Assembly: GCF_025716875.1 (NCBI RefSeq)
Contig: NZ_JAOVZB010000002.1
Coordinates: 372,001 to 436,000, forward strand
Source: Marinomonas sargassi
GTDB taxonomy: Bacteria > Pseudomonadota > Gammaproteobacteria > Pseudomonadales > Marinomonadaceae
Direction of reading: 5' to 3'
DNA length: 64,000 nt
The position numbers and the translations under genes were made by a program. Positions 6,885-51,525 of the stretch are shown here, in pieces. The notes beneath the pieces are model-generated. The model saw nothing but the letters and a program-made list of their open reading frames with translations, had not been told where the DNA came from and ran no database searches. Numbering within the stretch: the stretch's first letter is position 1; every line of letters begins with the position of its first letter.

Positions 6885-6886
6885 CC

Positions 6887-7660
6887 ATGAAAGATTTTTA
6901 CGGCACTAAACTAGAAACACCTTTTATGTTGGGAACAGCTCAATACCCTTCTCCCGCGATTCTATCCAATGCCTTTAAGCGCAGTGGCGCCAGCGTGGCA
7001 ACCGTATCCTTACGCCGCGAAGCTAGTGACGCCAAAGCAGGGCAAGATTTTTGGCAGCTGATTAAAGAGCTAAATGTACATATATTGCCGAATACTGCTG
7101 GCTGTCACACAGTAAAAGAAGCGGTTACCACAGCCCATATGGCACGAGAAATCTTCGGCACACCTTGGATTAAGCTAGAAGTCATAGGTGAAGAAGATAC
7201 CTTACAACCTGATGTATTCGGCCTAGTAGAAGCGGCTCGTATTCTCTCGGAGGAGGGTTTTCAGGTATTCCCTTACACCACAGAAGACTTAGTCGTAGCC
7301 GATAAACTGGTCGATGCTGGCTGCCGTGTTCTCATGCCTTGGGGCGCGCCTATTGGCTCTGGCATGGGGCTCAACAATGTCTTTGGCCTGCGAGCTTTGC
7401 GCTCTCACTTCCCAGATATTCCTTTGGTAGTTGATGCTGGCTTAGGCTTACCGAGCCAAGCGGCACAAGCGATGGAACTGGGAATGGATGCAATCCTGCT
7501 CAACACCGCCGTATCTAAAGCCGGCGACCCAGCCAAAATGGCAGAAGCGTTTGCCTTGGCTATTCGCTCAGGGCAACTAGCAGAACAAGCTGACCCTATG
7601 CAGCCCCGTGATATGGCTTCCCCTTCCACCCCTTTACTCGGCAAAGCCTTTTTGGATTAA
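6887..7660 (+). CDS. thiG: Thiazole synthase ThiG
   Basis: A 257-residue TIM-barrel enzyme that condenses deoxyxylulose 5-phosphate, dehydroglycine and ThiS-thiocarboxylate into the thiazole phosphate. Recognisable features are [13 protein letters not shown] at the N-terminus, the Schiff-base lysine region [12 protein letters not shown], the phosphate-binding [12 protein letters not shown] and [19 protein letters not shown]. It begins two bases after thiS, with GGAGG from the thiS 3' end serving as its ribosome site. Confidence 0.95.
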
Positions 7661-7664
7661 ACAC

Positions 7665-9313: not shown

Positions 9314-9374
9314 GTAACCGACTCGCAATTCAATGGAAGATAACCTTCATTAACTAAAAAAAATGGTCTCGATT

Positions 9375-10070
9375 ATGACAAGTGACATACCAGACTACGG
9401 CAAAACGTTCGCGCTTATGCGTGAAGGCTGTGTCGAACAATGGCAAGCGTACATCCAACACGATTTTGTAAAAGGTTTAGCTGACGGCTCTCTACCTGAA
9501 GAAGCCTTCATACATTACATGGTGCAAGATTATGTATACCTCATTCACTATGCTCGCGCATGGGCACTGGGTGTGGTGAAAGCCGAATCGTCTGAAGAAA
9601 TGCGTTTATGTGCAGCAACGGTGGATTCCCTCATCAACCAAGAGTTGTCTCTGCACGTGGAAACCTGCGCCGCTCAAGGAATTGACGAATCCTCCCTATT
9701 CAACGCCAAAGAAGAATTAGAAACCATAGCATACACACGCTATGTGTTGGATTCTGGCCTACAAGGGGACTTCTTAGATTTGATCTTGGCATTAGCTCCT
9801 TGTGCATTTGGCTATGGTGAAGTGGGCATGCGCCTAAAAGGCAGCCTCTACGACGGCCACCCTTACGAAAAATGGATCAAGATCTACGCGGGTGAAGAAT
9901 TCCAAAATGTCTGTGTCGAAGTGGGTCGTTTAGTGGATTTGGCCATTGCAACTCGTGTGGGTGATAACCCAACTGCCAGCCCTCGCTGGAACAAGATGCA
10001 AGAGCGCTTTACCAAGGCAACCGAGTTAGAAGCGAATTTCTGGACCATGGGTTTACGAGCAGGAAAATAA
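9375..10070 (+). CDS. tenA: Thiaminase II / aminopyrimidine aminohydrolase TenA
   Basis: A 231-residue all-helical TenA-family protein. TenA hydrolyses aminomethyl-aminopyrimidine, a breakdown product of thiamine, to HMP and so salvages the pyrimidine. The motif FIHYMVQDYVYLIHYARA, the nucleophile region ALAPCAFGYGEVG and the C-terminal ATELEANFWTMGL with the catalytic glutamate are all present. The start is uncertain: an ATG four codons upstream (9363) is in frame, and neither has a clear ribosome site. It follows thiF by about 60 bases and probably shares its transcript. Confidence 0.9.
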   Translation: MTSDIPDYGKTFALMREGCVEQWQAYIQHDFVKGLADGSLPEEAFIHYMVQDYVYLIHYARAWALGVVKAESSEEMRLCAATVDSLINQELSLHVETCAAQGIDESSLFNAKEELETIAYTRYVLDSGLQGDFLDLILALAPCAFGYGEVGMRLKGSLYDGHPYEKWIKIYAGEEFQNVCVEVGRLVDLAIATRVGDNPTASPRWNKMQERFTKATELEANFWTMGLRAGK

Positions 10071-10130
10071 GACTGCTTGCATAACCCTTTATAAAAAATA
10101 CTAACAAACGTTTAAAGAACAGGAAATAAA

Positions 10131-11570
10131 ATGATAAATGCACAATCAGCCATACTTTGGCTCGGCTTATTTGCCGCACTATTCGCCGTTGCAGGACTTG
10201 TATTTGCACGTCGCCAACAGGATGGCATGGAAGATTTTATCGTTGCACGTAATAGCCAAACCAGTAACGCCACTTTTCTTACACTGCTCGCTACAACAAT
10301 GGGCACGTGGGTCTTGTTTGGCCCAGCGGAAGCCGCTACTTGGGGTGGTATTGGTGCCGTTTTAGGCTACGCTCTAGGCGTATTAATCCCTCGCCTTGTG
10401 ATGATCCCCCTTGGTACACGTATTCGTCAAATCATGCCAACAGGACACACGCTAACGGAGTTCGTTTACGCCCGTTATGGCCGCAGTGTTTATGTTTTCG
10501 TGCTTTTCATCATGCTGTTTTACCTCTTTATTAGCTTAACAGCGGGCCTAACAGGGATTGCTCAAATGGTTGCATTATTAGCACCAGTTCCACTTTGGGT
10601 AACAGCCTCTATCGTTATGCTATCAACTCTGCTTTACACCCTATATGGCGGCCTAAAAGTCACCATCTTCACAGACAGATTACAGATGATTGTTATCTTG
10701 CCTTTCATTATGTTGATCTTGTTCTTAGGTTGGCAGGCGACTGGCGGTTTCACACCTGCTATCGAAGGGTTGAAAGAAAAAGCACCTCAATTGCTTAACC
10801 CATTTGATACCAATAGTTTACAGACGGGTGTGACTTTCTTCCTAGCGGTTTGCTTAACAGGCCTTTTCTACCAAGGTACGTGGCAGCGTATTTTCGCAGC
10901 TAAAGACGACAAAGTGATTCGCAATGGCTTTATTTTGAGTGGCGTTGTTAGCTTCCCTATCATCCTCGCACTGGGTCTATTTGGTTTAGCTTTCGTTGGT
11001 TTGTCTTTACCGGGTTCAGGATCAACAGCTTTATTTAGTGTGATGCTAGGTGATGCACCTTACTGGTTATTAATCGGCATGATCTTCTTTGGTTTGGCTC
11101 TGATTATGAGTAGTGCTGATTCCACTATTAGTGGCTTCCACAGTTTATTCATCATCGACCTAAACCGCATTATGCCAAACCTAGCTGAGAATAAACTGGC
11201 GAAAACCTCTCGTTGGTTAATCATAGTGATCTCTGTATTGGCACTATTGGTTGCTTCAAAAGGCTACAGTATTTTGTACCTTTTCTTGCTGGCTGATTTG
11301 CTATGTTGTGCGGCGGCCTTCCCAGTATTCTTTGGCTTCTACAACGCTCGCTACCAAAGCTACCAAGCTCTATTAAGTATCATTGGTGGTTTAGTGGCTG
11401 GTTTCTTCTACTTCCCTATGCCGTGGGAGCCGATTGCCTTCTTATTTGAATCCTTTGTACTGGCGACACTGGTGCCTGTTGCGATCTCATTAGCTTTACT
11501 GGTACTACCAAGTAAAAAAGCGTTCGATTTCTCTAACATTAGCCAAACGGTGAAAAAGCTAAGTAACTAA
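10131..11570 (+). CDS. Sodium:solute symporter (SSS family), candidate thiamine-precursor transporter
   Basis: A 479-residue inner-membrane protein with about thirteen hydrophobic helices. It carries SSS (PanF/PutP-type) features such as DFIVARNSQ after helix 1, ATTMGTWVLFGPAEAATWGG, LYGGLKVTIFTDRLQMIVI and FFGLALIMSSADSTISGFHSLFIIDLNR, the last matching the SSS sodium-site signature. It is the last gene of the riboswitch-controlled operon, next to tenA, so HMP or a degraded thiamine moiety is the likely substrate. PanF-like proteins called ThiV have been predicted for that role, from memory of thiamine-regulon comparisons. An AGGAA site precedes the ATG. Substrate is inference. Confidence 0.8.
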   Translation: MINAQSAILWLGLFAALFAVAGLVFARRQQDGMEDFIVARNSQTSNATFLTLLATTMGTWVLFGPAEAATWGGIGAVLGYALGVLIPRLVMIPLGTRIRQIMPTGHTLTEFVYARYGRSVYVFVLFIMLFYLFISLTAGLTGIAQMVALLAPVPLWVTASIVMLSTLLYTLYGGLKVTIFTDRLQMIVILPFIMLILFLGWQATGGFTPAIEGLKEKAPQLLNPFDTNSLQTGVTFFLAVCLTGLFYQGTWQRIFAAKDDKVIRNGFILSGVVSFPIILALGLFGLAFVGLSLPGSGSTALFSVMLGDAPYWLLIGMIFFGLALIMSSADSTISGFHSLFIIDLNRIMPNLAENKLAKTSRWLIIVISVLALLVASKGYSILYLFLLADLLCCAAAFPVFFGFYNARYQSYQALLSIIGGLVAGFFYFPMPWEPIAFLFESFVLATLVPVAISLALLVLPSKKAFDFSNISQTVKKLSN

Positions 11571-11602
11571 GCATTAGCTAAACGCTACTATCAGCACAAA
11601 CC

Positions 11603-11632
11603 AAAAAGCCCAGCATCTACTGGGCTTTTATT
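11603..11632 (+). terminator. Rho-independent terminator of the thiamine operon
   Basis: Arms 11604-11613 and 11620-11629 form a ten-pair stem with a GCCCAG/CTGGGC core, six-base loop and T-run. It lies 33 bases past the symporter stop codon. Confidence 0.85.
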
Positions 11633-11683
11633 TGTCTTATCCATTATGTCTCTTAACTATTATTTATACGCCTATTAAATAGA

Positions 11684-12631
11684 TTAGGAATAGTTAACCG
11701 AACCCTCAGGGTAAGGAATCAGGTCGTTAACACTTTGCGCCACAACTTTTCTAAACCATTGCACCGCAGGATCATTAGTTTTTGACCGCGGCCAGCAGAT
11801 ATAATAATTGGTTTCAGGGAAGGCAACAGGCACCTCTTTCATTACCAAGCCAAATTGCTCACTGAACCTCTGAGATAATAAGCCTGCGGTACTCATCAAT
11901 AACGAGGTTTTCCCCACCGTTTCTAACGCAGACAAGAAGTAAGGGGTACGAAAAGCAAAGTGCCTCTCTTTCGCACGCTCCCCCAGCAAGGTGTCACTTA
12001 GTACTCGCCCTGAGCCGCCCATACTCACTAAAACATGAGAGTAACCCAGATAATCCTCTAATGTGATGGTGTCTTGCTCTGCTAAAGGGTGATGTTTAGA
12101 CATAATGCAGTGAAACTTTTCCCGCCCTAATAATTCTTTATGAAAGCTATTAGGCACCTGAATGTATTCACTGCATAACACCACATCAAGTGGCTGTTCG
12201 ATAGACTGTAACAGGCTATTTTCGGTAATTGTGGTGGTTTCAAGTACAGCTAGGGGCGCTTCTCCATAAAAGCGTTTGGCAATCTCAGGCACATAGGCCT
12301 GAGCCTGATAATGGGAGGTTTTTAGATGGAAGGTTCGCTCACTCTGGGCTGGTATAAAATTAGGGGAAGACTCCATATGCACCATTTTTTCGATCATATA
12401 GCGGATTGGAGTTTCTAACTCTAATGCTCTGGAAGTCGGCAACATTTCTTTTGAAGTACGAATAAACAGCGGATCATCAAAAGCATTGCGAAGCCTTATA
12501 AGCAAACGACTCATGGCCGACTGACTAAGTGAAAGACGCTCTGCTGCACGGCCAACATGACGCTCTTCAATAAGGTACAAAAAGCCCGTTAAGGATTTTA
12601 GGTCTAGCTGCTGCAAGGCATTCGAAATCAT
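11684..12631 (-). CDS. LysR-family transcriptional regulator
   Basis: A 315-residue LysR protein. The N-terminal winged helix-turn-helix (about residues 8-65) reads LIEERHVGRAAERLSLSQSAMSRLL, and the rest is a periplasmic-binding-like co-inducer domain. The ATG at 12631 is preferred over a TTG two codons upstream. It is divergent from an EamA-type transporter gene only about 100 bases away, the usual arrangement for a LysR regulator and its target. The inducer is unknown. Confidence 0.85.
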   Translation of the reverse strand: MISNALQQLDLKSLTGFLYLIEERHVGRAAERLSLSQSAMSRLLIRLRNAFDDPLFIRTSKEMLPTSRALELETPIRYMIEKMVHMESSPNFIPAQSERTFHLKTSHYQAQAYVPEIAKRFYGEAPLAVLETTTITENSLLQSIEQPLDVVLCSEYIQVPNSFHKELLGREKFHCIMSKHHPLAEQDTITLEDYLGYSHVLVSMGGSGRVLSDTLLGERAKERHFAFRTPYFLSALETVGKTSLLMSTAGLLSQRFSEQFGLVMKEVPVAFPETNYYICWPRSKTNDPAVQWFRKVVAQSVNDLIPYPEGSVNYS

Positions 12632-16068: not shown

Positions 16069-17775
16069 ATGAAACAGCACCCAGCCGTTGTAGAATTTTC
16101 AAAAATTTTATCCAACCAACATATTGAAACCAACGAACGCCGTACTGAACACTATCGTTCTGGTTGGCGCTCCGGCAAGGGCACTGCGTTGGCTGTACTT
16201 TTTCCGCAAACATTGGTGGAATATTGGCAAGTTTTAAAAGTCTGTATTGCCCATGATTGCATCGTCATAATGCAGGCTGCAAAAACAGGCTTAACCGAAG
16301 GCTCGACGCCAAGCGGTAACGATTACGACCGTGATGTGGTTGTTATCAACACTCTTTCGATGAATCAGCTACTGATATTAGGCGAAGGCGAGCAAGTCAT
16401 CAGCTTCCCGGGAACAACCTTACATAAGCTTGAAAAAACATTAAAACCGCTATCACGCTCACCACATTCAGTTATTGGGTCTTCTAGCCTTGGGGCGACT
16501 ATTGTTGGTGGGGTTGCCAATAACTCTGGCGGTGCTTTAGTGAAACGAGGGCCTGCTTATACCCAGCTATCTTTGTTTGCTCAGGTTAACGAAAAAGGTG
16601 AACTGAACCTCGTTAACCATTTAGGTATAGACCTAGGTGAATCCCCAGAAGAGATTCTACAAAACCTAGAAGATGGTAACTTTGATCATTCCTCTTTCAA
16701 TGCAGACCCAAACAAACAAGCCAGCGCACAAAATTACCAAGAGTTACTACGAAATGTGGATGCTAATACCCCAAGCCGCTACAACGCAGACACCTCACGC
16801 TTGTATGAAGCCAGTGGCTGCGCAGGAAAACTTGCAGTTTTTGCTGTAAGGCTCGATAGCTTCCCTGTCGCGAAAAAAGAAAAGTCTTTTTACATTGGTA
16901 CCAACAGCGCGTCCGCTCTTACTCAGTTACGACGCAGAATCTTATCTGAATTCACCAACCTTCCTGAAGTAGGCGAATACGTTCATCGTGATATTTTTGA
17001 TGTTGCAACAAAATATGGTAAAGACACCTTTTTAAGCATCAAGCACCTAGGCACGGACAGAATGCCAAAGATGTTCGCCCTAAAGGGTAAAATCGACTCT
17101 GTATTGAATAAGTCCGCACTCGCTCCTGACTACCTAACAGACAGAGTGATGCAAGGCGTTGCCAAATTATTCCCTCAACACCTGCCAAAGCGCATGCTGG
17201 AATTTAGAGAAAAGTATGAACACTACCTCATATTAAAAATGAGCGATGAAGGAATCGCTGAGGCAGAAAAGTTCTTACCCGAATTCTTTGATGACAAAGA
17301 CAATGGTGCCTATTTCGAATGTAATGCAGAAGAAGCTTCTAGTGCTTATTTACACCGCTTTGCCGCAGCGGGTGCCGCTATTCGTTATCAATTGCTACAC
17401 CAAAAAGAGGTTGGCGAAATGATAGCCCTTGATATCGCCTTGCGCCGTAACGAGTTTGACTGGGTAGAACAGCTTCCTGCATCGTTACAAGAAAAGATCG
17501 ATAAATCCTTATACTACGGACATTTTTTCTGCCATGTATTTCACCAAGATTACGTACTTAAGAAAGGCGTAGATGCCAAAGAAGTAAAGGCAGAAATGCT
17601 CAGAATTTTAGATGGTCGCGGTGCGAAATACCCAGCAGAGCACAATGTGGGTCATCTTTATAAAGCTGAAGATGATCTCGTTAAGTTCTACAAAAAGCTC
17701 GACCCAACTAATACCTTTAATCCGGGTATCGGCAAAATGGAAAAAACCAAGCGCAATTGCTCTTGTTGCTTATAA
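16069..17775 (+). CDS. dld: Quinone-dependent D-lactate dehydrogenase (first copy)
   Basis: A 568-residue peripheral membrane flavoenzyme oxidising D-lactate to pyruvate and passing electrons to quinone. The N-terminal FAD-binding PCMH domain includes AKTGLTEGSTPSGNDYDRD and SVIGSSSLGATIVGGVANNS. The middle and C-terminal Dld-specific parts include HRDIFDVATKYGKDTF, YYGHFFCHVFHQDYV and the end YPAEHNVGHLYKA with DPTNTFNPGIGKM. The length matches the Escherichia coli Dld type. The protein ends in a cysteine-rich tail NCSCCL, also cysteine-rich in the second copy at 49.8 kb. It is divergent from a LysR gene. Confidence 0.93.
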   Translation: MKQHPAVVEFSKILSNQHIETNERRTEHYRSGWRSGKGTALAVLFPQTLVEYWQVLKVCIAHDCIVIMQAAKTGLTEGSTPSGNDYDRDVVVINTLSMNQLLILGEGEQVISFPGTTLHKLEKTLKPLSRSPHSVIGSSSLGATIVGGVANNSGGALVKRGPAYTQLSLFAQVNEKGELNLVNHLGIDLGESPEEILQNLEDGNFDHSSFNADPNKQASAQNYQELLRNVDANTPSRYNADTSRLYEASGCAGKLAVFAVRLDSFPVAKKEKSFYIGTNSASALTQLRRRILSEFTNLPEVGEYVHRDIFDVATKYGKDTFLSIKHLGTDRMPKMFALKGKIDSVLNKSALAPDYLTDRVMQGVAKLFPQHLPKRMLEFREKYEHYLILKMSDEGIAEAEKFLPEFFDDKDNGAYFECNAEEASSAYLHRFAAAGAAIRYQLLHQKEVGEMIALDIALRRNEFDWVEQLPASLQEKIDKSLYYGHFFCHVFHQDYVLKKGVDAKEVKAEMLRILDGRGAKYPAEHNVGHLYKAEDDLVKFYKKLDPTNTFNPGIGKMEKTKRNCSCCL

Positions 17776-17949: not shown

Positions 17950-18966
17950 ATGAAATATACAACTAACCATCAAAGCACTCCAACTCAAAACACTCTATCT
18001 CAAAGCACTCTAACTCAAAGCCCTGTTACTCAAGGTACAGTTGCTCAAAGTACAACTGCTCAAACCCCATTATTAATGGCGCAAAACCTTGTCTTGCCTT
18101 CACGAGAAGAGATGCTCCAGCGTGCACCTTCTGTTCAGCACTTTTGGGATTCAAACCGCAACTTATTGGCTGACGCTTGGCAGGAATGGGAGGCAATTCC
18201 AAGTAATCAGCTAAATATTGAAAGCGACCTACTTTTAGACGAAAAATTACGTGCTGCAGTCACTCAAGCATGGCGTGAACCCGCCATTGAGTCTGAGGTA
18301 GAAAATTTATGGCAAGAGGTATCAACGGATGTTTATCAGAGCCAGTTCTTTGACCCAGAACAAATCGTCGAGCTACGTAATTACTTAGATAAAGTCGCTG
18401 CAAGTGAAATCCCCATGCGCCCTCCCTACGGAATTGTATTGAACCGCTATGGTGCCATGCTGGATCCACGTTCAGAGGGGTATCTTGCTGCGCCTAGTTT
18501 TCAAAAGCTTTACCGCAAAATTGTGGACGAATATATGCGACCTATCGCACGCCTTTTGTTCCCAGAAATAGTCGGCTACGACACACAAAGCTTTGGCTTT
18601 TCTATCCAGTATCAAGCAGGGAAAGACACTTCTCTTCGACTTCATACGGATGCGTCGTCGGTTACCCTAAATATCAATATTAACCTTCCTGATGAAGAGT
18701 TCGCCGGCTCAGAAGTAGACTTCTATGACCCGAGCACAGGTAAGGTAAATAGGCTCTCCTTCAAGCCGGGGACAGCAATGATACATAGGGGCAACGTCGC
18801 CCATGCAGCGCAACCGATAACCAGCGGTACACGCTCCAACCTTGTACTTTGGCTTTATGGAGATCGTATGCAAATACCCAATGGCAGGAATCAAAATACG
18901 AGTATAGATGCAGCTCAACGTTGGACTACTCCTACCAGTAAACAGGATACCTTCGCACCATTTTGA
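17950..18966 (+). CDS. 2OG-Fe(II) oxygenase superfamily protein with N-terminal pentapeptide repeats
   Basis: A 338-residue protein. The C-terminal half is a double-stranded beta-helix oxygenase: the iron ligands read HTD in LRLHTDASSVTLNIN and the distal histidine is in HRGNVAHAA, followed by the 2-oxoglutarate-binding arginine in SGTRSNLVLW. A short ENLWQEVSTDVYQ region precedes it. Residues 8-40 are six 5-residue units rich in Gln, Ser and Thr (see repeat). The ATG at 17950 has GAGGATAT ahead. A later in-frame ATG would exclude the repeats, but no better ribosome site is seen there. Substrate unknown. It sits alone between two hairpins. Confidence 0.75.
   Translation: MKYTTNHQSTPTQNTLSQSTLTQSPVTQGTVAQSTTAQTPLLMAQNLVLPSREEMLQRAPSVQHFWDSNRNLLADAWQEWEAIPSNQLNIESDLLLDEKLRAAVTQAWREPAIESEVENLWQEVSTDVYQSQFFDPEQIVELRNYLDKVAASEIPMRPPYGIVLNRYGAMLDPRSEGYLAAPSFQKLYRKIVDEYMRPIARLLFPEIVGYDTQSFGFSIQYQAGKDTSLRLHTDASSVTLNININLPDEEFAGSEVDFYDPSTGKVNRLSFKPGTAMIHRGNVAHAAQPITSGTRSNLVLWLYGDRMQIPNGRNQNTSIDAAQRWTTPTSKQDTFAPF
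17971..18060 (+). repeat. Six tandem 15-bp units coding QSTLT-like pentapeptides
   Basis: Units start at 17971, 17986, 18001, 18016, 18031 and 18046, each beginning CAA and coding Gln-Ser/Asn/Gly-Thr/Pro-x-Thr/Ser/Ala; a partial seventh starts at 18061. They lie in frame at the oxygenase N-terminus and could expand or shrink by whole units without shifting the frame. Confidence 0.85.
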
Positions 18967-29162: not shown

Positions 29163-29639
29163 TTAACCAATAATTTGCAGAGGTAATGCCTGAGTATTCT
29201 TTAATTCACTCAATACGGCATTTGAGTTTATGGCGTGAATCTTAGGCAATTTTGATAGGTGCTTATAAAAAAAACGTTCATAGCTTTCCATGTCTTTAGT
29301 GACAATGCGTAATAGAAAATCACTGTTGCCTAGCATTGAATAACATTCCGTTATTTCTGCATGCTGACAGATCGCCTGCTCAAACAAAGCGAGTGTGTTC
29401 TCATCGTTCTCTGATAACTTAACCTCTGTATAGAGTACCAAATTAAAACCCAAGGATTTACGGTTGAGCACAGCGACTTTCTGCTGAATAAACCCTTTTT
29501 CTTCTAGTCGTTGAATTCTTCTCCAACAAGGGGTTTGGGATAGATTAACTTTTTCAGCAATTTCTAAGGTCGATAAGCTTGCGTCAACCTGTAGGCACCC
29601 CAAAATAGCGAGATCTATTTTATCAAGTTCATTATTCAT
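29163..29639 (-). CDS. Lrp/AsnC-family transcriptional regulator
   Basis: A 158-residue regulator. The helix-turn-helix spans about residues 20-45 (STLEIAEKVNLSQTPCWRRI) and is followed by the RAM/ligand-binding domain with HAEITECYSMLGNSDFLLRI. Such proteins respond to amino acids. It is divergent from the 2OG-dioxygenase/PLP-enzyme pair across a 208-base AT-rich interval, which strongly suggests it controls them. Confidence 0.9.
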   Translation of the reverse strand: MNNELDKIDLAILGCLQVDASLSTLEIAEKVNLSQTPCWRRIQRLEEKGFIQQKVAVLNRKSLGFNLVLYTEVKLSENDENTLALFEQAICQHAEITECYSMLGNSDFLLRIVTKDMESYERFFYKHLSKLPKIHAINSNAVLSELKNTQALPLQIIG

Positions 29640-29707
29640 ATTTTTCTCTCCTCATGTTCCGTTTTCGGTATTAGCTACGCATTACTTATGCTCTAATTTA
29701 GTTAATT

Positions 29708-29720
29708 GAAAATATTTTTC
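29708..29720. promoter_or_regulatory. AT-rich palindrome, possible Lrp-type site
   Basis: GAAAATATTTTTC at 29708-29720 is nearly self-complementary and lies in the divergent interval beside the Lrp-type gene. Further A/T blocks with TTAG/CTAA ends occur at 29721-29752. Lrp-family sites are typically repeated, AT-rich imperfect palindromes. Assignment is by context. Confidence 0.35.
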
Positions 29721-29847
29721 TAACAATCTAATTTATTTTAGAAAAATTAGCCAATATTCCTTTTTATAGCGCATTAATAGCAAAATTTTTCTTTTAGTTC
29801 GTCGTTATACTAAAAACCAGTTGCTTAGTATTTATTAAGGAGAACCC

Positions 29848-30477
29848 ATGAAGAATAAATTGCTACTTGCTGCGTTCCAAATACCCCATAATTTTCATTC
29901 CGAATTAGGGATGTATTTCGAACAATTACCCGTTGATCCTTATATCGACGGAGATTATCGACTACGAGGTTATTCTCGTTATCAGAAAAAAGGCGATAGC
30001 TACACTCGCTTACCCCATACACCATTTTGTCAGTCGTCAAATATTAATCGCTTGGTAGGTGACGTTCAGCGTGATTTTTCGCCTATGGATGAGCACATCG
30101 ATCATACGGATGAGCTTCAGCACCTATTACGCTCGTTTGCTGAATATACACTGGGGGGTGAAGATGGCGTTATTGAGGCACATCAAATTCGAGTAACCTG
30201 TGACGCCCAACAAGCGGGTAACCCTGCCCCAGAAGGCATCCATCAGGATGGATTTAACTTTGTAGGAATTTGCTGTCTTAAGCGCCAAGATATTTCTGGC
30301 GGAAACACCAAGATTTTCACTGACTCAGAAGGTGAAGATTTGCACATAAACACGGTGTTAGAAGAAGGCCAATTTATCATTTTTAATGACCAGCGTTATT
30401 ACCACTATGTGTCAGAAACCTTATCAGAACAACAAGGAAAAAAAGGAGTAAGAGATGTCTTCGTTTTCACAGCATAA
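29848..30477 (+). CDS. 2OG-Fe dioxygenase family protein (PF10014-like), amino-acid hydroxylase candidate
   Basis: A 209-residue protein of the 2OG-Fe_Oxy_2 family, which includes L-isoleucine 4-hydroxylase IDO. Iron ligands are seen in GIHQDGFNFVGICC (His-x-Asp) and the distal histidine in NDQRYYHYVSET; RDVFVFTA at the C-terminus supplies the 2-oxoglutarate-binding arginine. The N-terminus has the substrate lid region LRGYSRYQKKGD. It overlaps the next gene by 23 bases, so the two are translated together. Expected reaction: hydroxylation of a free amino acid with CO2 and succinate as by-products. Substrate unknown. Confidence 0.8.
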   Translation: MKNKLLLAAFQIPHNFHSELGMYFEQLPVDPYIDGDYRLRGYSRYQKKGDSYTRLPHTPFCQSSNINRLVGDVQRDFSPMDEHIDHTDELQHLLRSFAEYTLGGEDGVIEAHQIRVTCDAQQAGNPAPEGIHQDGFNFVGICCLKRQDISGGNTKIFTDSEGEDLHINTVLEEGQFIIFNDQRYYHYVSETLSEQQGKKGVRDVFVFTA

Positions 30478-31717
30478 ACCAAAATTACTAGAGCAGATTA
30501 ATAGCATCAGGCAGCAATTTCCTGCTTTAAATACTCAAGACTCCGAGTCCCTACCAATATTTTTTGATGGTCCAGGAGGGACGCAAATCCCTACCTCTGT
30601 TATTGCCGCAGTGGGCGATTATTACCGACAAGGAAACTCCAATTTAGGAGGAGACTTTAGCGTAAGCCGAAAAACTGTTGATATCGTAAATACAGCCCGT
30701 GACTGCGTCGCAACATTGGTTGGAGCAACGTCTCCAAGTACGATTGTTTTTGGCGCGAATATGACCAGCCTAACCCTAAGCTTTAGCCGCTCAATTGGGC
30801 AAACATGGCAGGCTGGAGATAATATTATTTTGTCCGAAGCTGACCACGGTGGAAACCGCAGCGCATGGAAACGTATTGCAGAAGAACGAGGCGTTCATGT
30901 GCATTACATCCCTATTATTGACAAGAAATGTGCGTTGGATCTTAAGTATTTTGATACCTTAATCAATAACAAAACGCGCTTAGTTGCTGTGACCGCTGCT
31001 AGTAACGTGAGTGGTACTAGAACCGATCTAGAACACATTATAAAAGCAGCAAAAGAGAACGGAGCGATAAGTTACATTGATGCTGTGCATCTATTACCGC
31101 ATCAACGTCTTAATGTAACAGAGTTAGACTGTGACTTTTTAGCGGGATCTGTGTACAAATTCTTTGGCCCACATGTGGGATTTGTTTACGGGAAAAAACA
31201 ACATTTAGAAGGCTTTAAGCCTTACAAAGTCGAGCCAGCACCGACCTTCCCACCTAATTGTTGGGAAACAGGAACGCTTAACTTTGAAGCCCTCGCCGGT
31301 ACGGTTGCTGCCATTCATTATATGGCCTCACTCGGTGAAGGTGACTCGTTAGATGAACAACTGGATGATGCTTACCAAAACATTATTCGTTACGAACACC
31401 ATCTAGCAAAAATGTGTCTAGATAAGCTAATCGCTATGCCAGAAGTCACAATCTATGGTGTACATAACGATAGCTACCATGAGAGAACGCCGACCTTCGC
31501 GTTATCATTTGCTAATCACCAGCCTAAAGAAATTGCTCAAGCGTTGGGAGAAAAAAATATTTTCACATGGAGCGGTCACTTGTACGCAGACAAACTTATC
31601 GACTCACTAGGCTTAAGTGATAAAGGCGGGATACTACGAATTGGTCTAACGCACTACAACACCGAAGCTGAAGTTGATTTGTTTATTGAAACGTTAGAAA
31701 GCATTCTTAATAGCTAA
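30455..31717 (+). CDS. Class V PLP-dependent enzyme (cysteine-desulfurase-like)
   Basis: A 420-residue aminotransferase class V protein of the cysteine-desulfurase-like group. Residues about 38-60 read FFDGPGGTQIP and the PLP-lysine motif is SVYKFFGPHVGFVYG. PLP-contacting pieces are EADHGGNRSAW and AASNVSGTRTDLEHI. A cysteine in the mobile loop position of true desulfurases is not obvious, so it is more likely an aminotransferase, lyase or epimerase-type member. AAAGGAG sits eight bases before the ATG, inside the preceding gene. Partnered with the dioxygenase and Lrp regulator, it could process the hydroxylated amino acid. Confidence 0.8.
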   Translation: MSSFSQHKPKLLEQINSIRQQFPALNTQDSESLPIFFDGPGGTQIPTSVIAAVGDYYRQGNSNLGGDFSVSRKTVDIVNTARDCVATLVGATSPSTIVFGANMTSLTLSFSRSIGQTWQAGDNIILSEADHGGNRSAWKRIAEERGVHVHYIPIIDKKCALDLKYFDTLINNKTRLVAVTAASNVSGTRTDLEHIIKAAKENGAISYIDAVHLLPHQRLNVTELDCDFLAGSVYKFFGPHVGFVYGKKQHLEGFKPYKVEPAPTFPPNCWETGTLNFEALAGTVAAIHYMASLGEGDSLDEQLDDAYQNIIRYEHHLAKMCLDKLIAMPEVTIYGVHNDSYHERTPTFALSFANHQPKEIAQALGEKNIFTWSGHLYADKLIDSLGLSDKGGILRIGLTHYNTEAEVDLFIETLESILNS

Positions 31718-36459: not shown

Positions 36460-37524
36460 TTATATTTCTGAAAATGGAATTACACATAATTTACCTGTAA
36501 TCATACTAACCATTTGATACATGAATTGTTTGGGTAATATAGCTACGGCCTCTGTCGCTATAGGCCTAAGTTCACCCTGCATTATTTCTTCAATCTCACT
36601 TGGCCTATACCTAGCAGAATGCCCCAAATAGAACATTAGAAGATAAGAATTACATAAATGGTGGTATGTACCTTCCTGTATGGAGCAATAATACCTATAT
36701 CCATTACGAGTTAGAATGGAGGCAATTCCAAGGGTGGAGTATTCTTTCAACACATTTTTGTAAACACTGGGCCAGTTATCGTTACTGACTTTTTTTCTTT
36801 TCTGACTTCTATATATTACTTTCCCGTCTTTTTCATATGGTTCCAAGAAATAGTCTTTCCTGTTATTTTTCCGGAATTTTTTTGTATCAATACTATTTTC
36901 AAGACCTTTTGGATAATCAACCTCAGTCATAAGATAAGTGGCTGCTTCATTAACACAAAATCTAATATTAATAGGCAAGTACTTTGGCTGTTTGAAAAAA
37001 CCAAGGTTCCTGCTAATACCACTAAGCTCTGGAATAAATGTACATACATTACGAAGCATTAACTCATGCTTACCCGACACTGGAGTTCCCAGTATTTTTG
37101 CAAATTCTAAAAAGACATTTGTACAGTTTTTGATTTTCCCAGATATTGTCAATGAGTGTTTTTTTCCATGAGTATTTGTTATACCGTGATGCTCAGCAAT
37201 ATCCTCAAGCTTTATTTTATTAACAGAAAGAAGTGTTTTAACAAGGTTCATCATACCGTAATAATAAAGTGTGCCTTTTGCAGGCATGCTGACTGACTCT
37301 GCAGCTTTGTAAAAGTCTTCGGCTAGAGATGCAAAATACCTTGCTCTTGTAAAACACTTTCTATTATTACCTACAGATTTATCAATTCTTTCAAGAAGAT
37401 GACCATGCATAAACGACCAAGGGTCAGCTGTCAAAATAGCTAACTCTGCAGGCTCCATTGATATATGCGAGTACCTAACCTTTTGATATTTATATTTTGC
37501 TTCCTTAACTTCTTGTAAAGCCAT
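36460..37524 (-). CDS. YaaC-like protein, partner of the reverse transcriptase
   Basis: A 354-residue soluble, helix-rich protein resembling YaaC-family proteins by FTRARYFASLAEDFYKAA, the LYYYGMMNLVKTLLS block and the C-terminal YLLMFYLGHSARYRPSEI. This family has no established activity. It starts about 100 bases after the upstream reverse-transcriptase gene on the same strand, so the two very likely form one operon. The DNA is clearly more AT-rich than the flanks. No signal peptide, membrane helix or nuclease motif is evident. A role as effector or companion of the RT is inference from linkage. Confidence 0.6.
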   Translation of the reverse strand: MALQEVKEAKYKYQKVRYSHISMEPAELAILTADPWSFMHGHLLERIDKSVGNNRKCFTRARYFASLAEDFYKAAESVSMPAKGTLYYYGMMNLVKTLLSVNKIKLEDIAEHHGITNTHGKKHSLTISGKIKNCTNVFLEFAKILGTPVSGKHELMLRNVCTFIPELSGISRNLGFFKQPKYLPINIRFCVNEAATYLMTEVDYPKGLENSIDTKKFRKNNRKDYFLEPYEKDGKVIYRSQKRKKVSNDNWPSVYKNVLKEYSTLGIASILTRNGYRYYCSIQEGTYHHLCNSYLLMFYLGHSARYRPSEIEEIMQGELRPIATEAVAILPKQFMYQMVSMITGKLCVIPFSEI

Positions 37525-37626
37525 AATCCCTCTAACTAAAAATCTAATAAATAAGGTTGAAGTAAATTTTATTATTACGACTAGCTTATGAGCCTCTCAA
37601 TTATTACAGCACATGCCCTGTTAAAT

Positions 37627-39108
37627 TTATATTTTACGAACAGCACTCGCTATTAGAAAATTCATTTGAGATACGTTGCTAAAATACTTCAGCATATGAT
37701 TCCTATTATTTCTGCTCATACCTCTTGTGCCAACTGCAGATGACCAAGAAAGCCAGTCAGCCCTGCCAACCCTCAGATATTGCTCTCTTATATCAGGTAA
37801 ACCAAACCTCAGATCTGGAATTTCTAAGATCTTACTTTTACTAATATCAGTGGCATACTTATGCTCTAAAAGCTTTACTAAAATTGAGCTATATTCAGAT
37901 GTTCCACCTAAGTATTCTTCAGCTATTTTTGCAAACCAAAATAGTTGTTCTTCAGTAACGATTACTGAGTTATCTAGATGATCAATTATAACCTGAGCTA
38001 ATGAGCTCTTATCATCAATATTTTTGCAGAAATAAAATAGCTTTTTACTTAGATTTGGAAATTTATCAAAAAACACTGCTATATATTCAAGTACATCTTC
38101 ACCTTTATCGTTCATAAAAGTAAGGATAAGCTCTGCATCCATTTCCTCTAACTCGGGATTATGGAGAAGGTTGTATAAATACTCTTGCTGCTCAGAATCA
38201 AGGGTCAACTCACCCTCAATCTCAACTTCTTCTTCACCGTTATACGTTTCTACAAGCTCAGTTCTAACATATAAAAGCTGCTTTCTAACTTCTTCTATGT
38301 GTTCATCCACATTTTCAATAGCAATCTTTCCCTGTTTTGTTTTAGAGCTATTGAAGCTAAGGCCTTTCTCCCCTGAAAGCTGTTGAAGAAGAATAAAGTC
38401 ATGCTCAACCTTTTGCTGATTATTTGAAAAGAGGTAAATATCATCCATGAATCGAAACATTAGATCTGATTTCAATATTCTTGAATTGTCTAAAAACTTA
38501 AGAAACTCTGCACCAATAACCTTGCATGGGTGAATTCCCTGAGGTAAACAATCTACGCTTCGGCCAGAGTTTATTTCTCTCAAAAACTGCCCCAGCCCCT
38601 CAACATCGGATTGGTCCCTATCTCCATCATCAAACCACTTTACAATATCATGGTGATAAACTGAGTTGAAATATGTAGCAATATCAAGTTTCAACCCATA
38701 TTCAAACTTTGCATTGGCTTCAGCTACAGACTTTTTAAACTCTCTATAGGCTTTACTTAGGGGAATAGCTTTGCCATTTTCGAAACGATGCCCAAAACTA
38801 ATTCTATTGTCTGAAAAGTCCTTTCTAAATGAAGTTCGGTTTCTGTTTATTAGATCATATATATAAAATTCGGCAACAGGGTCTAATTTTAATGTTCTCC
38901 TAAGATGCAAACCATGCTTTGCCGCATGACACCTAGCTTGAGGAAGAAAATGATGTGATTCTTCATTATTATTCAGCACACTTTGATATATATATTCACT
39001 TAGTTCAACAGCACCATTTTCAATAACAATTCGATTTGTATCTAAAGGGAACAACCCTTTAGAAAAGTCATCCTTGAAATACTCTACAGTTCTATCCACT
39101 GACGCCAT
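37627..39108 (-). CDS. Reverse transcriptase, Abi/DRT-like
   Basis: A 493-residue protein with the palm motifs of RNA-directed DNA polymerases: motif A KLDIATYFNSVYHHDIVKW (Asp142), motif B CLPQGIHPCKVIGAEFL (188-204), the catalytic FMDD in RFMDDIYLFS (220-223) and motif D GLSFNSSKTKQGK (249-261). There is no group II intron maturase X domain and no msr/msd-type retron signature was recognised. The C-terminal half (about 270-493) is helix-rich without a known domain, ending with the RNNRNH sequence at 466-471 that fits a HEPN RNase RxxxxH pattern. Abi-type and 'unknown group' RTs of this layout act in phage defence. Class not determined. Confidence 0.85.
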   Translation of the reverse strand: MASVDRTVEYFKDDFSKGLFPLDTNRIVIENGAVELSEYIYQSVLNNNEESHHFLPQARCHAAKHGLHLRRTLKLDPVAEFYIYDLINRNRTSFRKDFSDNRISFGHRFENGKAIPLSKAYREFKKSVAEANAKFEYGLKLDIATYFNSVYHHDIVKWFDDGDRDQSDVEGLGQFLREINSGRSVDCLPQGIHPCKVIGAEFLKFLDNSRILKSDLMFRFMDDIYLFSNNQQKVEHDFILLQQLSGEKGLSFNSSKTKQGKIAIENVDEHIEEVRKQLLYVRTELVETYNGEEEVEIEGELTLDSEQQEYLYNLLHNPELEEMDAELILTFMNDKGEDVLEYIAVFFDKFPNLSKKLFYFCKNIDDKSSLAQVIIDHLDNSVIVTEEQLFWFAKIAEEYLGGTSEYSSILVKLLEHKYATDISKSKILEIPDLRFGLPDIREQYLRVGRADWLSWSSAVGTRGMSRNNRNHMLKYFSNVSQMNFLIASAVRKI

Positions 39109-49489: not shown

Positions 49490-49776
49490 CTTTATTGGCT
49501 TAGCCCTCTTGGCTTAACCCTCTTGGCCCAGCCCTTCCCGTATTCCCCTCACCTAATATGAATCTAATTATTCGTTATGAGCGTATTACATCATTGAATA
49601 AATAGTTTGCTATGAGTCTATGCAAAGGCAGCCAGCTCTTATTTTCATGAGCGCTTTCTGTGACCTTTTAGACAAAATCATATTGATGTAACTCAAGACT
49701 TTATTCGCAAATTTCATTTTAACTTTTGCTTAATTCCGTATACTTACCTCGAATTTATTTTATGGTACCCAAGCTT

Positions 49777-51525
49777 ATGTCTAAACTGCCTGTTAACGAA
49801 TTGATTTCGCGTTTTCAAGAGATTGTTGGAAAACGCTACACCCTAACCTCTGCTGCGAAAACCGCACCTTACTGCAAAGGCTTTCGATTGGGTTCGGGCA
49901 GTGCCGTTGCGGTGGCTAGACCGGGTACCTTGTTAGAAATATGGAAACTGTTAGAGGTGTGTGTTGCAGCGGATGTCATTGTTATTATGCAGGCAGCAAA
50001 CACAGGTTTAACCGGTGGTTCAACACCAGATGGCAATAGCTATGATCGTCCTGTTGTTGTCATTAGCACAATGCGTATTAGCGAGATTCAAATTATTGAC
50101 CAAGGCAAACAAATCATCGGCCTTGCGGGCAGTACTTTGTTTGGTTTGGAAGATCAGCTAAAACCGTTTGGGCGTGAACCGCATTCTGTAATCGGTTCTT
50201 CTTGTATCGGTGCTTCTATTGTCGGTGGTGTTTGTAATAACTCTGGCGGTGCTTTAGTTCACCGTGGCCCAGCTTACACAGAGTTAGCGATTTATGCGCA
50301 AGTTAATGCAGAGGGCCAACTACAACTGGTCAATAACCTTGGCATCAAGCTTGGTGACACACCAGAAGAAATGCTGACCAATTTGCATAACGGACGCTAC
50401 CAAGAAGACGATGTGGAGTTCCCTAATAAATTAGCTTCTGATAATCAGTACCATGAACGCGTTCGTGAAATTGATGCGGACACACCATCACGTTTTAATG
50501 CCGATCCTCGCCGCCTTCATGAATCTTCAGGTTGTGCCGGTAAACTGGCGGTATTTGCCGTTCGCTTAGATACCTTCCCGATTGCTGAGAAGCAATGTAC
50601 TTATTATGTGGGTACGAATGATTCCACTGTGATGACACAAATTCGTCGTGACATGTTATCCACTTTTAAGAACCTGCCGATCTCTGGTGAATACCTACAC
50701 CGCGATTGTTACGATGCTTGTAAAAAGTACGGTAAAGATTCTTTCGTTGTCATTGATAAACTAGGCGCTAAATACATGCCTAAGCTGTTTTCAATGAAGC
50801 GCTCTATCGACAGCATGGCGGAAAAAATCCCATTCTTGCCAAGCAAGTTCTCTGACCGTATGTTGCAGTTCATGAGTAAGTTCATGCCAAACCACCTGCC
50901 TAAGCGTATGGAAGACTTCCGTGATAAGTATGAACACCACTGGATTATTGAAACCAGCAACGATTGTGTAGACGAAGCACGAGAATACTTAGAGAGCTTC
51001 TTTCAACATAATGATAACGAAGGTGATTTCTTCGCCTGTACCGAACGTGAGTCAGATCAAGCTATCCTTCATCGATTTGTTGCTGGTGGCGCCATTGGTC
51101 GTAAGCTCATCATGGAAAAAGAGTCAGCGAAGCTGGGTAGTATCATGACTATCGATGTGGCTTTCCCTCGCAACGAGCGTGAGTGGGTAGAAAATCTTCC
51201 TGCAGAAATTGAAGACCACTTGGCCGTAAAACTCTACTACGGACACTTCTTCTGCCATGTTATGCACCAGAATTACATTATGAAAGAAGGTTCAGATGCG
51301 AAAGCCGTTAAGCAAAAAATTCTGAAAACCTATGATGAGCGCGGCGCAGAATATCCAGCCGAGCATAACGTGGGTAATGAATATGTTGCCAAGCAGTCAC
51401 TCCGTAACTTCTATAAGCAAATTGACCCAACTAACAGCTTCAATGCTGGGATTGGTAAAACTAGTAAGCTGAAGCACTATGCCGGTCAAGACGATGGTCC
51501 ATCTTGTGGTTGTAGCCATCACTAA
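49777..51525 (+). CDS. dld: Quinone-dependent D-lactate dehydrogenase (second copy)
   Basis: A 582-residue Dld-type flavoenzyme, clearly a paralogue of the 16.1 kb copy: AANTGLTGGSTPDGNSYDRP, SVIGSSCIGASIVGGVCNNS and YYGHFFCHVMHQNYIM line up with it. The start was set at the ATG at 49777, because the N-terminus then matches other Dld proteins; a TTG at 49726 and an ATG at 49762 lie upstream in frame. The C-terminus ends in the metal-binding-like SCGCSHH. Residues differ enough that the two copies may differ in substrate or regulation. Confidence 0.92.
   Translation: MSKLPVNELISRFQEIVGKRYTLTSAAKTAPYCKGFRLGSGSAVAVARPGTLLEIWKLLEVCVAADVIVIMQAANTGLTGGSTPDGNSYDRPVVVISTMRISEIQIIDQGKQIIGLAGSTLFGLEDQLKPFGREPHSVIGSSCIGASIVGGVCNNSGGALVHRGPAYTELAIYAQVNAEGQLQLVNNLGIKLGDTPEEMLTNLHNGRYQEDDVEFPNKLASDNQYHERVREIDADTPSRFNADPRRLHESSGCAGKLAVFAVRLDTFPIAEKQCTYYVGTNDSTVMTQIRRDMLSTFKNLPISGEYLHRDCYDACKKYGKDSFVVIDKLGAKYMPKLFSMKRSIDSMAEKIPFLPSKFSDRMLQFMSKFMPNHLPKRMEDFRDKYEHHWIIETSNDCVDEAREYLESFFQHNDNEGDFFACTERESDQAILHRFVAGGAIGRKLIMEKESAKLGSIMTIDVAFPRNEREWVENLPAEIEDHLAVKLYYGHFFCHVMHQNYIMKEGSDAKAVKQKILKTYDERGAEYPAEHNVGNEYVAKQSLRNFYKQIDPTNSFNAGIGKTSKLKHYAGQDDGPSCGCSHH

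What the first reader, a model, noticed from the sequence alone, without database searches (positions are those of the whole stretch)
29163..31717. Lrp-controlled dioxygenase plus class V PLP enzyme, possible amino-acid hydroxylation-and-breakdown module
An Lrp-type regulator is divergent from a PF10014-like 2OG dioxygenase overlapping by 23 bases with a class V PLP enzyme. IDO-type dioxygenases hydroxylate free amino acids, and a PLP enzyme could cleave or transaminate the product. No named pathway with this pair is known to me.
Basis: partly seen in the sequence, partly recalled or inferred. Interest (0 to 1): 0.6.

Follow-up and report, generated by a model that had tools for sequence, protein, structure and literature searches.

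The report
Two-gene amino-acid side-chain cutting cassette
Two overlapping bacterial genes, one that probably puts a hydroxyl group on the fourth carbon of an amino acid and one that probably cuts the chain next to it to leave alanine and an aldehyde or ketone, travel together through many marine bacteria and some cyanobacteria, although the second is annotated misleadingly as a cysteine desulfurase-like protein.

Summary
The enzyme pair is real: in the 30 closest dioxygenase loci kept by the scan the PLP gene lies directly downstream (30 of 30), and 27 of 30 keep a candidate start codon 23 or 26 bases before the dioxygenase stop. No third gene is shared across the genera; a divergent Lrp relative occurs in 1 of the 30. 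Many more distant dioxygenases lack the PLP neighbour. Best reading: C4 hydroxylation of a free L-amino acid, then Cβ–Cγ cleavage to alanine and an aldehyde or ketone. Reasons: published relatives attack C4; Tyr replaces the desulfurase cysteine in 42 of 42 aligned relatives; the PLP profile ranks FGM3, a 4-hydroxyarginine lyase, narrowly first among solved structures; related dioxygenases sit beside a HpcH/HpaI aldolase in 14 of 50 loci; in four loci the PLP partner comes from another clade. Substrate unknown; no activity shown.

The parts
29163..29639 (-). Lrp/AsnC-family regulator gene, divergent
   Evidence: PF13404 64.8, PF13412 68.7, PF01037 64.3 bits; Lrp equivalog model NF008370 only 113 of 233 bits
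29640..29847 (.). 208-base divergent intergenic region, presumed promoters
   Evidence: sequence; E. coli Lrp consensus (recalled) best match 13 of 15, reached by 88 of 500 mononucleotide shuffles, so not significant; no sigma-70-like site in it by consensus
29848..30477 (+). PF10014 Fe(II)/2OG dioxygenase, predicted C4-hydroxylase of a free L-amino acid
   Evidence: 188 bits; model pLDDT 91.6; nearest folds HrmJ 9dq0 Z 24.7, 3pl0 Z 24.4, BelL 8jms Z 23.9, 8w8h Z 23.6, IDO 6lnh Z 22.0
30241..30249 (+). iron-ligand motif His132-x-Asp134 of the dioxygenase
   Evidence: invariant in 38 of 38 aligned relatives; role as iron ligands by family knowledge
30403..30405 (+). distal iron ligand His186
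   Evidence: invariant in 38 of 38
30444..30448 (+). AGGAG Shine-Dalgarno-like site of the PLP gene, inside the dioxygenase gene
   Evidence: a similar string in 25 of the 27 loci that keep the overlap start
30455..30477 (+). 23-base overlap of the two genes (start of PLP gene to dioxygenase stop)
   Evidence: candidate start kept at 23 or 26 bases before the stop in 27 of 30 related loci
30455..31717 (+). class V PLP enzyme (TIGR01976, 'cysteine desulfurase-like'), predicted Cβ–Cγ lyase of a 4-hydroxy-amino acid
   Evidence: TIGR01976 432 bits, cut-off 352; profile of nine paired enzymes ranks FGM3 first in the PDB
31157..31159 (+). Lys235, predicted PLP Schiff-base lysine (YK motif)
   Evidence: invariant in 42 of 42; position by alignment to SufS
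31583..31585 (+). Tyr377 at the place of the SufS catalytic cysteine
   Evidence: Tyr in 42 of 42; aligned to the Cys of SufS GHHC

Best explanation
A self-contained two-enzyme cassette that removes the side chain of an amino acid. Step 1 (inferred): the PF10014 dioxygenase uses Fe(II), 2-oxoglutarate and O2 to hydroxylate C4 of a free aliphatic L-amino acid. Step 2 (inferred): the class V PLP enzyme takes the 4-hydroxy-amino acid as an external aldimine and, with no catalytic cysteine, breaks the Cβ–Cγ bond by a retro-aldol reaction, giving L-alanine (or 2-aminobutyrate if Cβ carries a methyl group) and an aldehyde or ketone. Candidates: arginine gives alanine + guanidinoacetaldehyde, leucine gives alanine + acetone, isoleucine gives 2-aminobutyrate + acetaldehyde, lysine gives alanine + 3-aminopropanal. 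The 23-base overlap, with its own ribosome site, suggests coupled synthesis of the two proteins. Shown: the genes, their pairing, the overlap, the missing cysteine, the partner exchange. Inferred: reactions, substrate, catabolic purpose, regulation by the neighbouring Lrp-family protein.
For: Pairing: 30 of 30 nearest loci; of the next 50, 9 with the PLP gene downstream and 1 divergent about 0.9 kb away. In the genus 34 of 48 genomes have a dioxygenase relative, 5 of 48 have the PLP gene, and all 5 lie beside a dioxygenase. Genome co-occurrence: of 7 of 369 class genomes with TIGR01976 over cut-off, 5 also have a dioxygenase relative (21 of 369 do); P 7e-6 by genome, 0.0027 by genus, relatedness ignored. 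Partner exchange: in Moritella (3 loci) and Vibrio sp. HI00D65 the dioxygenase belongs to the window clade but the PLP enzyme to the Salinivibrio/Photobacterium GJ3 clade (trees; holding these 4 PLP rows with the window clade is rejected, AU p 0.0006, and Vibrio alone 3e-5). Chemistry, step 1: published PF10014 enzymes hydroxylate C4 of Ile, Leu and Thr (passages of PMC3684760); the nearest folds include HrmJ, BelL and IDO, the first two recalled as attacking C4 of 6-nitronorleucine. Step 2: FGM3 is the best PDB match of the paired-PLP profile, E 3e-79, and cleaves Cβ–Cγ of 4-hydroxyarginine to alanine (passages of PMC10967133); YK, GPH, R-x-PT and LGLSD are shared with FGM3 and not with the SufS rows printed. 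Other partners of the dioxygenase also fit a 4-hydroxy product: a HpcH/HpaI aldolase gene directly upstream in 14 of 50 loci (two of the proteins checked) and a GntC/VioD-like enzyme in Streptomyces (217 of 415 bits). PLP relatives without the dioxygenase lie near aldehyde dehydrogenase in 4 of 4 Rhizobium loci read (of 8 Rhizobium records listed) and beside an alcohol dehydrogenase in Vescimonas.
Against: No activity, metabolite or structure with substrate. FGM3 leads SufS by only 6 bits in the profile search, and with the single window sequence four desulfurase entries rank above FGM3. The fold comparison listed 50 desulfurase-type rows at Z 48.7 to 52.7 and no FGM3 row. Many relatives of the dioxygenase have no PLP neighbour: 29 of 34 genus genomes have no PLP gene, 26 of the 50 more distant loci have neither PLP nor HpcH within about 1 kb, and none of the other 21 class-sample dioxygenase loci (L002-L022, up to 1.5 kb of flank) shows the PLP gene. 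In the order sample only 4 of 9 PLP loci have the dioxygenase beside them. One of the 5 co-occurring class genomes (G107) has a PLP relative outside the paired clade (L157, 29% identical). No aldehyde-handling gene is conserved next to the pair itself. In Rhizobium CIAT894 a PLP relative and a HpcH gene lie together without the dioxygenase.
Confidence: 0.55

Rival explanations
1. The PLP enzyme cyclises or dehydrates the 4-hydroxy-amino acid (as GntC does with 4-hydroxyarginine), so the pair makes a non-protein amino acid.
For: A GntC/VioD-like PLP enzyme takes the downstream place in Streptomyces sp. NBC_00557, so 4-hydroxy products may go that way; PF10014 enzymes elsewhere serve secondary metabolism (PMC3684760 passages).
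Against: That Streptomyces enzyme is of the class I/II type (PF00155), not the class V enzyme of the window; no biosynthetic, export or NRPS gene is shared across the loci of the pair; the best characterised match of the class V profile is a C–C lyase.
Confidence: 0.12
2. The PLP enzyme is an aminotransferase, or a β-eliminating lyase on the hydroxylated amino acid, and a host aldolase or dehydrogenase finishes the breakdown.
For: The class V family includes such enzymes (general knowledge); a HpcH/HpaI aldolase, which would act on 4-hydroxy-2-oxo acids, is the neighbour of related cyanobacterial dioxygenases; in Rhizobium CIAT894 a PLP relative, two short-chain dehydrogenases and a HpcH protein lie together.
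Against: Of the 80 loci none has both the PLP gene and a close HpcH gene beside the dioxygenase, so beside this dioxygenase they look like alternatives; FGM3 does the whole cut alone.
Confidence: 0.15
3. The PLP enzyme is a cysteine desulfurase, selenocysteine lyase or sulfinate desulfinase, as its database name says, and the dioxygenase is a neighbour by chance or acts on a sulfur amino acid.
For: Fold and overall sequence are SufS-like: Z about 50 to SufS entries; annotated 'cysteine desulfurase-like' in public records.
Against: Catalytic Cys replaced by Tyr in 42 of 42; SufS model 228.8 of 475.1 bits, while TIGR01976 is passed at 432 of 352; the tight pairing and start-codon overlap.
Confidence: 0.08
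4. The pair works in the synthetic direction or makes a signal: the PLP enzyme joins an enamine to an aldehyde, as UstD does, or the 4-hydroxy-amino acid is the product and the PLP enzyme limits it.
For: UstD forms γ-hydroxy amino acids by adding an enamine to aldehydes (passages of PMC11976203) and appears in the profile search (7mkv, E 4e-44); B. thuringiensis converts 4-hydroxyisoleucine to an antimicrobial (PMC3684760 passages).
Against: A dioxygenase that already makes a γ-hydroxy-amino acid leaves no need for an aldol synthase; UstD aligns over part of the profile (5-243) and far below FGM3.
Confidence: 0.07

Closest known systems
Fgm1 (P450) and Fgm3 (PLP lyase) of the fusaoctaxin cluster of Fusarium graminearum
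   Same: C4 hydroxylation of an amino acid (arginine) followed by PLP-dependent Cβ–Cγ cleavage to alanine and a second product (review passages); Fgm3 is the top PDB match of the paired-PLP profile
   Different: Fungal, biosynthetic, hydroxylase is a P450; here a 2OG dioxygenase, bacterial, two-gene cassette, substrate unknown
L-isoleucine 4-dioxygenase IDO and HilB (PF10014)
   Same: Same Pfam family; fold match to IDO 6lnh Z 22.0; [quoted passage not shown]
   Different: Partners there are a reductase and exporter (IDO operon) or HilA and a short-chain dehydrogenase; some Hil operons hold a PLP enzyme, but of another family, PF00291; HilB model 27.3 of 350 bits; 18% identity to IDO in the fold alignment
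HrmJ and BelL (recalled: nitrocyclopropyl-alanine formation)
   Same: Among the closest solved folds (Z 24.7 and 23.9); recalled to abstract hydrogen at C4
   Different: Recalled as cyclopropanation in natural-product pathways without a partner lyase
TIGR01976 'cysteine desulfurase-like' (VC1184) family
   Same: Passes the cut-off at 432 bits
   Different: The model is a hypothetical equivalog with no assigned reaction; this work suggests one for its dioxygenase-paired clade
UstD decarboxylative aldolase
   Same: Relative by profile; makes γ-hydroxy-amino acids via an enamine, and retro-aldol loss of product is mentioned (PMC11976203 passages)
   Different: Works in the synthetic direction (aspartate as donor, recalled); distant by sequence

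Membership tests
PF10014 2OG-Fe dioxygenase | Match to the family model above its cut-off | tested here: met
   188 bits, cut-off 23.1
PF10014 2OG-Fe dioxygenase | Iron-binding HxD...H | tested here: met
   H132, D134, H186 invariant in 38 of 38
PF10014 2OG-Fe dioxygenase | Presumed 2OG-binding Arg after the distal His (R202) | tested here: met
   Present in the window and all 18 rows of its clade shown; Met or Phe in 6 of the 38 rows (same-genus, L054, Salinivibrio, Photobacterium GJ3). That R202 binds 2OG is inferred
PF10014 2OG-Fe dioxygenase | Double-stranded β-helix fold like IDO | tested here: met
   Z 22.0 to 24.7 to HrmJ, 3pl0, BelL, 8w8h and IDO; model pLDDT 91.6
PF10014 2OG-Fe dioxygenase | C4 hydroxylation of a free L-amino acid | not testable with these tools
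   Needs enzyme assay
HilB equivalog (3(1)-hydroxy-L-isoleucine 4-dioxygenase) | Curated cut-off | tested here: not met
   27.3 of 350 bits
Cysteine desulfurase (SufS/IscS/CsdA) | Catalytic cysteine in the GHHC loop | tested here: not met
   Tyr377 in 42 of 42; place of the Cys from the SufS alignment
Cysteine desulfurase (SufS/IscS/CsdA) | Curated family cut-off | tested here: not met
   sufS 228.8 of 475.1; CsdA 155.7 of 493.6; IscS 57.5 of 643.2 bits
TIGR01976 (VC1184) | Curated cut-off | tested here: met
   432.1 of 352.35 bits
FGM3-type 4-hydroxy-amino-acid Cβ–Cγ lyase | Nearer to FGM3 than to desulfurases | tested here: inconclusive
   Profile: FGM3 first at E 3e-79, SufS 2.5e-77, a 6-bit lead; single sequence ranks desulfurases first; fold rows close together and FGM3 not listed
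FGM3-type 4-hydroxy-amino-acid Cβ–Cγ lyase | No catalytic cysteine; YK, GPH, R-x-PT and LGLSD motifs | tested here: met
FGM3-type 4-hydroxy-amino-acid Cβ–Cγ lyase | Releases alanine from a 4-hydroxy-amino acid | not testable with these tools
   Needs enzyme assay
Lrp/AsnC regulators | AsnC-type HTH and ligand-binding domain | tested here: met
   PF13404 and PF01037 above cut-off
Leucine-responsive regulator Lrp itself | Lrp equivalog cut-off | tested here: not met
   113.3 of 233 bits; one of 12 matches to it in the genome, itself included

The most novel reading that the evidence does not exclude
A previously undescribed, O2-dependent bacterial route that removes the whole side chain of a common amino acid beyond Cβ without deaminating it: C4 hydroxylation by a PF10014 dioxygenase and retro-aldol cleavage by a cysteine-less 'desulfurase', giving alanine plus acetone (from leucine), guanidinoacetaldehyde (from arginine) or a like carbonyl. 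It would be spread as a two-gene cassette, overlapping in the window's clade, through Vibrionaceae, Moritella, Endozoicomonas, some cyanobacteria and others, and would give a function to part of the TIGR01976 family. In related cyanobacteria a HpcH/HpaI aldolase would do the same cut at the keto-acid level.
Probability: 0.4. Interest if true: 0.72.

Novelty: new variant of a known kind. Interest (0 to 1): 0.56.

Why it matters
If true, it defines a two-step amino-acid degradation (or carbonyl-producing) route that ordinary annotation hides behind the name 'cysteine desulfurase-like', gives TIGR01976 a testable reaction, and supplies a natural enzyme pair for making or breaking γ-hydroxy-amino acids, which are wanted in biocatalysis. 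The exchange of PLP partners between clades offers natural variants for finding what sets the substrate. It would also show that the fungal hydroxylate-at-C4-then-cleave logic has a bacterial counterpart with a different hydroxylase.

Tried and rejected
Lrp as a core part: rejected as a general rule, since by tblastn a divergent Lrp relative occurs in 1 of 30 related loci; the intergenic region aligned to that of L072 gave no clear shared site by eye and Lrp-consensus matches were within shuffles (88 of 500 and 389 of 500 reach the best score). Promoter and terminator scans found fewer sites than shuffles (4 against a mean of 7.3; 1 against 2.3).

Fold comparison to tell lyase from desulfurase: the 50 rows listed lie at Z 48.7 to 52.7 and neither FGM3 nor UstD is among them, so it does not decide.

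A conserved third gene (transporter, aldehyde dehydrogenase): none shared across genera in the neighbour clustering of 80 loci and the window (the commonest immediate neighbours of the 30 close loci, clusters 13 and 14, are confined to 7 Enterovibrio/Grimontia loci), nor in 14 loci read by eye (L129 has a short-chain-dehydrogenase-like ORF after the PLP gene). The SDR–KBL–tryptophanase run beside the dioxygenase in Kovacikia and beside the pair in L119 is a local neighbourhood in two cyanobacteria.

Substrate choice: arginine is hinted at by FGM3, by a GntC-like partner, by agmatinase within about 8 kb of the PLP gene in 2 of 4 Rhizobium loci and creatininase in 1, and by an argininosuccinate-synthase-related neighbour of a distant dioxygenase; leucine and isoleucine by the characterised PF10014 enzymes. 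Not decided. Two of the four Rhizobium loci (L070, L200) share one gene order and are not independent.

Plasmid records: of 37 with a dioxygenase match I read 6: PLP beside it in 3 (Gloeothece, Salinivibrio, Photobacterium GJ3), other partners in Streptomyces, Mesorhizobium and Kovacikia. Of 33 with a PLP match I read 8 others, none with the dioxygenase in view; the Aeromonas stretch begins only 378 bases before its PLP gene.

Literature: searches (open-access library only) listed no paper that I recognised as describing a PF10014 dioxygenase paired with a TIGR01976 enzyme. Seen as found passages only: PMC10967133, PMC8948231, PMC3684760, PMC11976203, PMC13336071. Other papers were seen only as listings with the start of the abstract.

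L090 has its PLP match in two pieces and fell out of the PLP tree under a 300-residue limit. Trees are 'quick' trees with the mixture model off and warn of long branches; the clade tests used a careful tree of 57 of the 89 rows, mixture model off, with groups named after the first tree was seen. L001, L019, L021, L022, L052 and L053 were left out of the dioxygenase tree, and L001, L052, L053, L155, L185, loci from L186 on and rows with E above 1e-25 out of the PLP tree.
Full report
Observation. The dioxygenase (29848-30477) and PLP gene (30455-31717) overlap by 23 bases; the Lrp/AsnC gene (29163-29639) reads away across 208 bases. Families: PF10014 (188 bits), PF00266 (228 bits), and AsnC HTH plus ligand domain. 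In NCBIfam the PLP enzyme passes TIGR01976, 'cysteine desulfurase-like' (432 of 352 bits), and falls far below the desulfurase models listed; the regulator falls below the Lrp equivalog model (113 of 233).

Is the pair real? The 30 closest (L072-L101, 48-71% identical: Pseudocolwellia, Vibrio, Photobacterium, Enterovibrio, Grimontia, Veronia, Moritella, and one contig labelled Planctomycetota) all carry the PLP gene directly downstream, 30 of 30. Of the other 50, mostly cyanobacteria at 37-42%, 9 have it downstream on the same strand and one (L138) divergent, about 0.9 kb away; 14 have instead a HpcH/HpaI-type gene upstream on the same strand (the other 13 are 75-85% identical to that of L108; gap 134-533 bases in the 12 measured); 26 have neither within about 1 kb. 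No third gene is shared across the genera in the neighbour clustering, so the unit is the two genes. In the window's genus 34 of 48 genomes, the window's included, have a dioxygenase relative (31-40% identical apart from the window's own), 5 of 48 have the PLP gene, and all 5 of those genes lie beside a dioxygenase. In a sample of 369 genomes of the class, 7 pass TIGR01976 and 21 have a dioxygenase relative; 5 are shared (P 7e-6; 3 of 5 genera, P 0.0027; relatedness ignored). Three of the five are one genus whose PLP enzymes group with that of Piscirickettsia salmonis; there the two genes lie on different contigs or 0.3 Mb apart. A fourth, G107, has a PLP relative outside the paired clade. Against the pairing, 29 of the 34 genus genomes have the dioxygenase without the PLP gene, in the order sample only 4 of 9 PLP genes lie by a dioxygenase, and none of the other class-sample dioxygenase loci (L002-L022, up to 1.5 kb of flank) shows the PLP gene.

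Coupling. The PLP start codon lies inside the dioxygenase's last codons (RDVF), with AGGAG at 30444-30448. In 27 of 30 related loci an ATG stands 23 or 26 bases before the dioxygenase stop, in 25 of the 27 with a Shine-Dalgarno-like string; in several of them longer frames with earlier starts are also open. The three without it are Moritella, where the Asp codon is GAC and the PLP gene starts 55-169 bases after the stop. GAT is used at that codon in 27 of 27 overlap loci against 66% at their other Asp codons (P 1.6e-5), but GAT also prevails (41 of 47) in the other loci scored, so the test is supportive, not strong.

Partner exchange. The dioxygenase tree puts the window in a 31-row clade, all PLP-paired (SH-aLRT 98), which includes Moritella and Vibrio sp. 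HI00D65. In the PLP tree these four PLP enzymes leave that clade and join those of Salinivibrio and Photobacterium GJ3, whose dioxygenases fall in a different clade. Holding all four with the window-clade PLPs is rejected (AU p 0.0006; Vibrio alone 3e-5), and the six-row group has support 100/100 (57 of 89 rows). So dioxygenases of two diverged clades stand beside one PLP clade, which argues for a shared product beyond simple co-inheritance. The tests were made after the first tree was seen, and the quick dioxygenase tree warns of long branches.

Step 1. Iron ligands H132, D134 and H186 are invariant in 38 of 38; R202, presumed to bind 2OG, is present except in six rows of the Salinivibrio/same-genus group. 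The predicted structure (pLDDT 91.6) matches HrmJ 24.7, 3pl0 24.4, BelL 23.9, 8w8h 23.6, IDO 22.0 and a second HrmJ 20.2-20.6 by Z, then TqaL 18.0, then other rows at 13.0 or less. Passages of PMC3684760 state that PF10014 members hydroxylate leucine, isoleucine and threonine to their 4-hydroxy forms. That HrmJ and BelL attack C4 of 6-nitronorleucine is recalled.

Step 2. Lys235 and its YK motif are invariant (42 of 42), while the place of the SufS cysteine is Tyr in 42 of 42. The nine-sequence profile ranks FGM3 (9x4u) first in the PDB, E 3e-79, with SufS next at 2.5e-77, a narrow lead; the single window sequence ranks four desulfurase entries above FGM3, and structure gives desulfurase-type rows at Z 48.7-52.7 without FGM3. 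By eye the window shares with FGM3, and not with the SufS rows printed, GGxQ near residue 41, YK, GPH, R-x-PT, an aromatic residue at the cysteine place, LGLSD, and His before YNT. A review says that Fgm3 cleaves Cβ–Cγ of 4(R)-hydroxyarginine and gives L-alanine (passages of PMC10967133).

Other partners point the same way. Two of the cyanobacterial HpcH/HpaI proteins were checked (PF03328, 129 and 118 bits); one has as best NCBIfam match the 4-hydroxy-2-oxoheptanedioate aldolase model, at 179 of 369 bits, below cut-off. Such an aldolase would cut 4-hydroxy-2-oxo acids. A Streptomyces plasmid pairs the dioxygenase with a GntC/VioD-like enzyme (217 of 415 bits), GntC being named for γ-hydroxyarginine. 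PLP relatives without the dioxygenase lie near aldehyde dehydrogenase in 4 of 4 Rhizobium loci read (9 kb off in one; two of them share one gene order), with agmatinase in 2 of 4; next to an alcohol dehydrogenase and amino-acid permease in Vescimonas; not in Shinella. In one of the Rhizobium loci a HpcH protein lies with the PLP gene, so the two are not strict alternatives everywhere.

Verdict. The most likely function is C4 hydroxylation of a free amino acid and Cβ–Cγ cleavage to alanine (or 2-aminobutyrate) and a carbonyl compound. The substrate is open; arginine and leucine lead. The Lrp-family gene may regulate the pair here and in Pseudocolwellia (74% identical, divergent) but is not part of the conserved unit.

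Noticed in passing
window 36460-39108 (-): Reverse transcriptase of the DRT5 anti-phage type (PADLOC Drt5, 672 bits, E 2e-202) directly followed by a 354-aa YaaC-family protein (PF14175, 114 bits).
   Followed up: partly
window 17950-18966 (+): Another possible 2OG-Fe(II) oxygenase (PF13640 22.8 and OGFOD2-like 27.4 bits, both under cut-off) with a Thr/Gln/Ser-rich repetitive N-terminus, next to a D-lactate dehydrogenase gene (16069-17775).
   Followed up: partly
window 16069-17775 and 49726-51525: Two D-lactate dehydrogenase-like genes in one window; only the first was matched to Pfam, the second was judged by eye.
   Followed up: no
L065 4920-9358 (Kovacikia minuta plasmid) and L119: Dioxygenase followed by an epimerase-type dehydrogenase, a KBL-like enzyme and a tryptophanase-family enzyme; in L119 the PLP partner is there as well.
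   Followed up: partly
L108 10616-11764 and 13 further cyanobacterial loci: A gene convergent with and close to the dioxygenase in 14 cyanobacterial loci (cluster 4); the L108 copy is DUF711 (PF05167).
   Followed up: no
L064 (Mesorhizobium huakuii plasmid) 3700-12579: Distant dioxygenase overlapping an argininosuccinate-synthase-related gene by 4 bases, with a DMT transporter and an NRPS nearby: a possible arginine-derived natural product cluster.
   Followed up: no
L032, L049, L051, L054, L062, L066: These dioxygenases have Met or Phe in place of the presumed 2-oxoglutarate-binding Arg202 although the iron ligands are kept.
   Followed up: no
L075 10584-11867 (Vibrio sp. HI00D65): PLP enzyme of the exchanged clade that keeps the overlapping ATG and a window-clade-like N-terminus (MSSFLPPN), as if only part of the gene had been replaced.
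   Followed up: no
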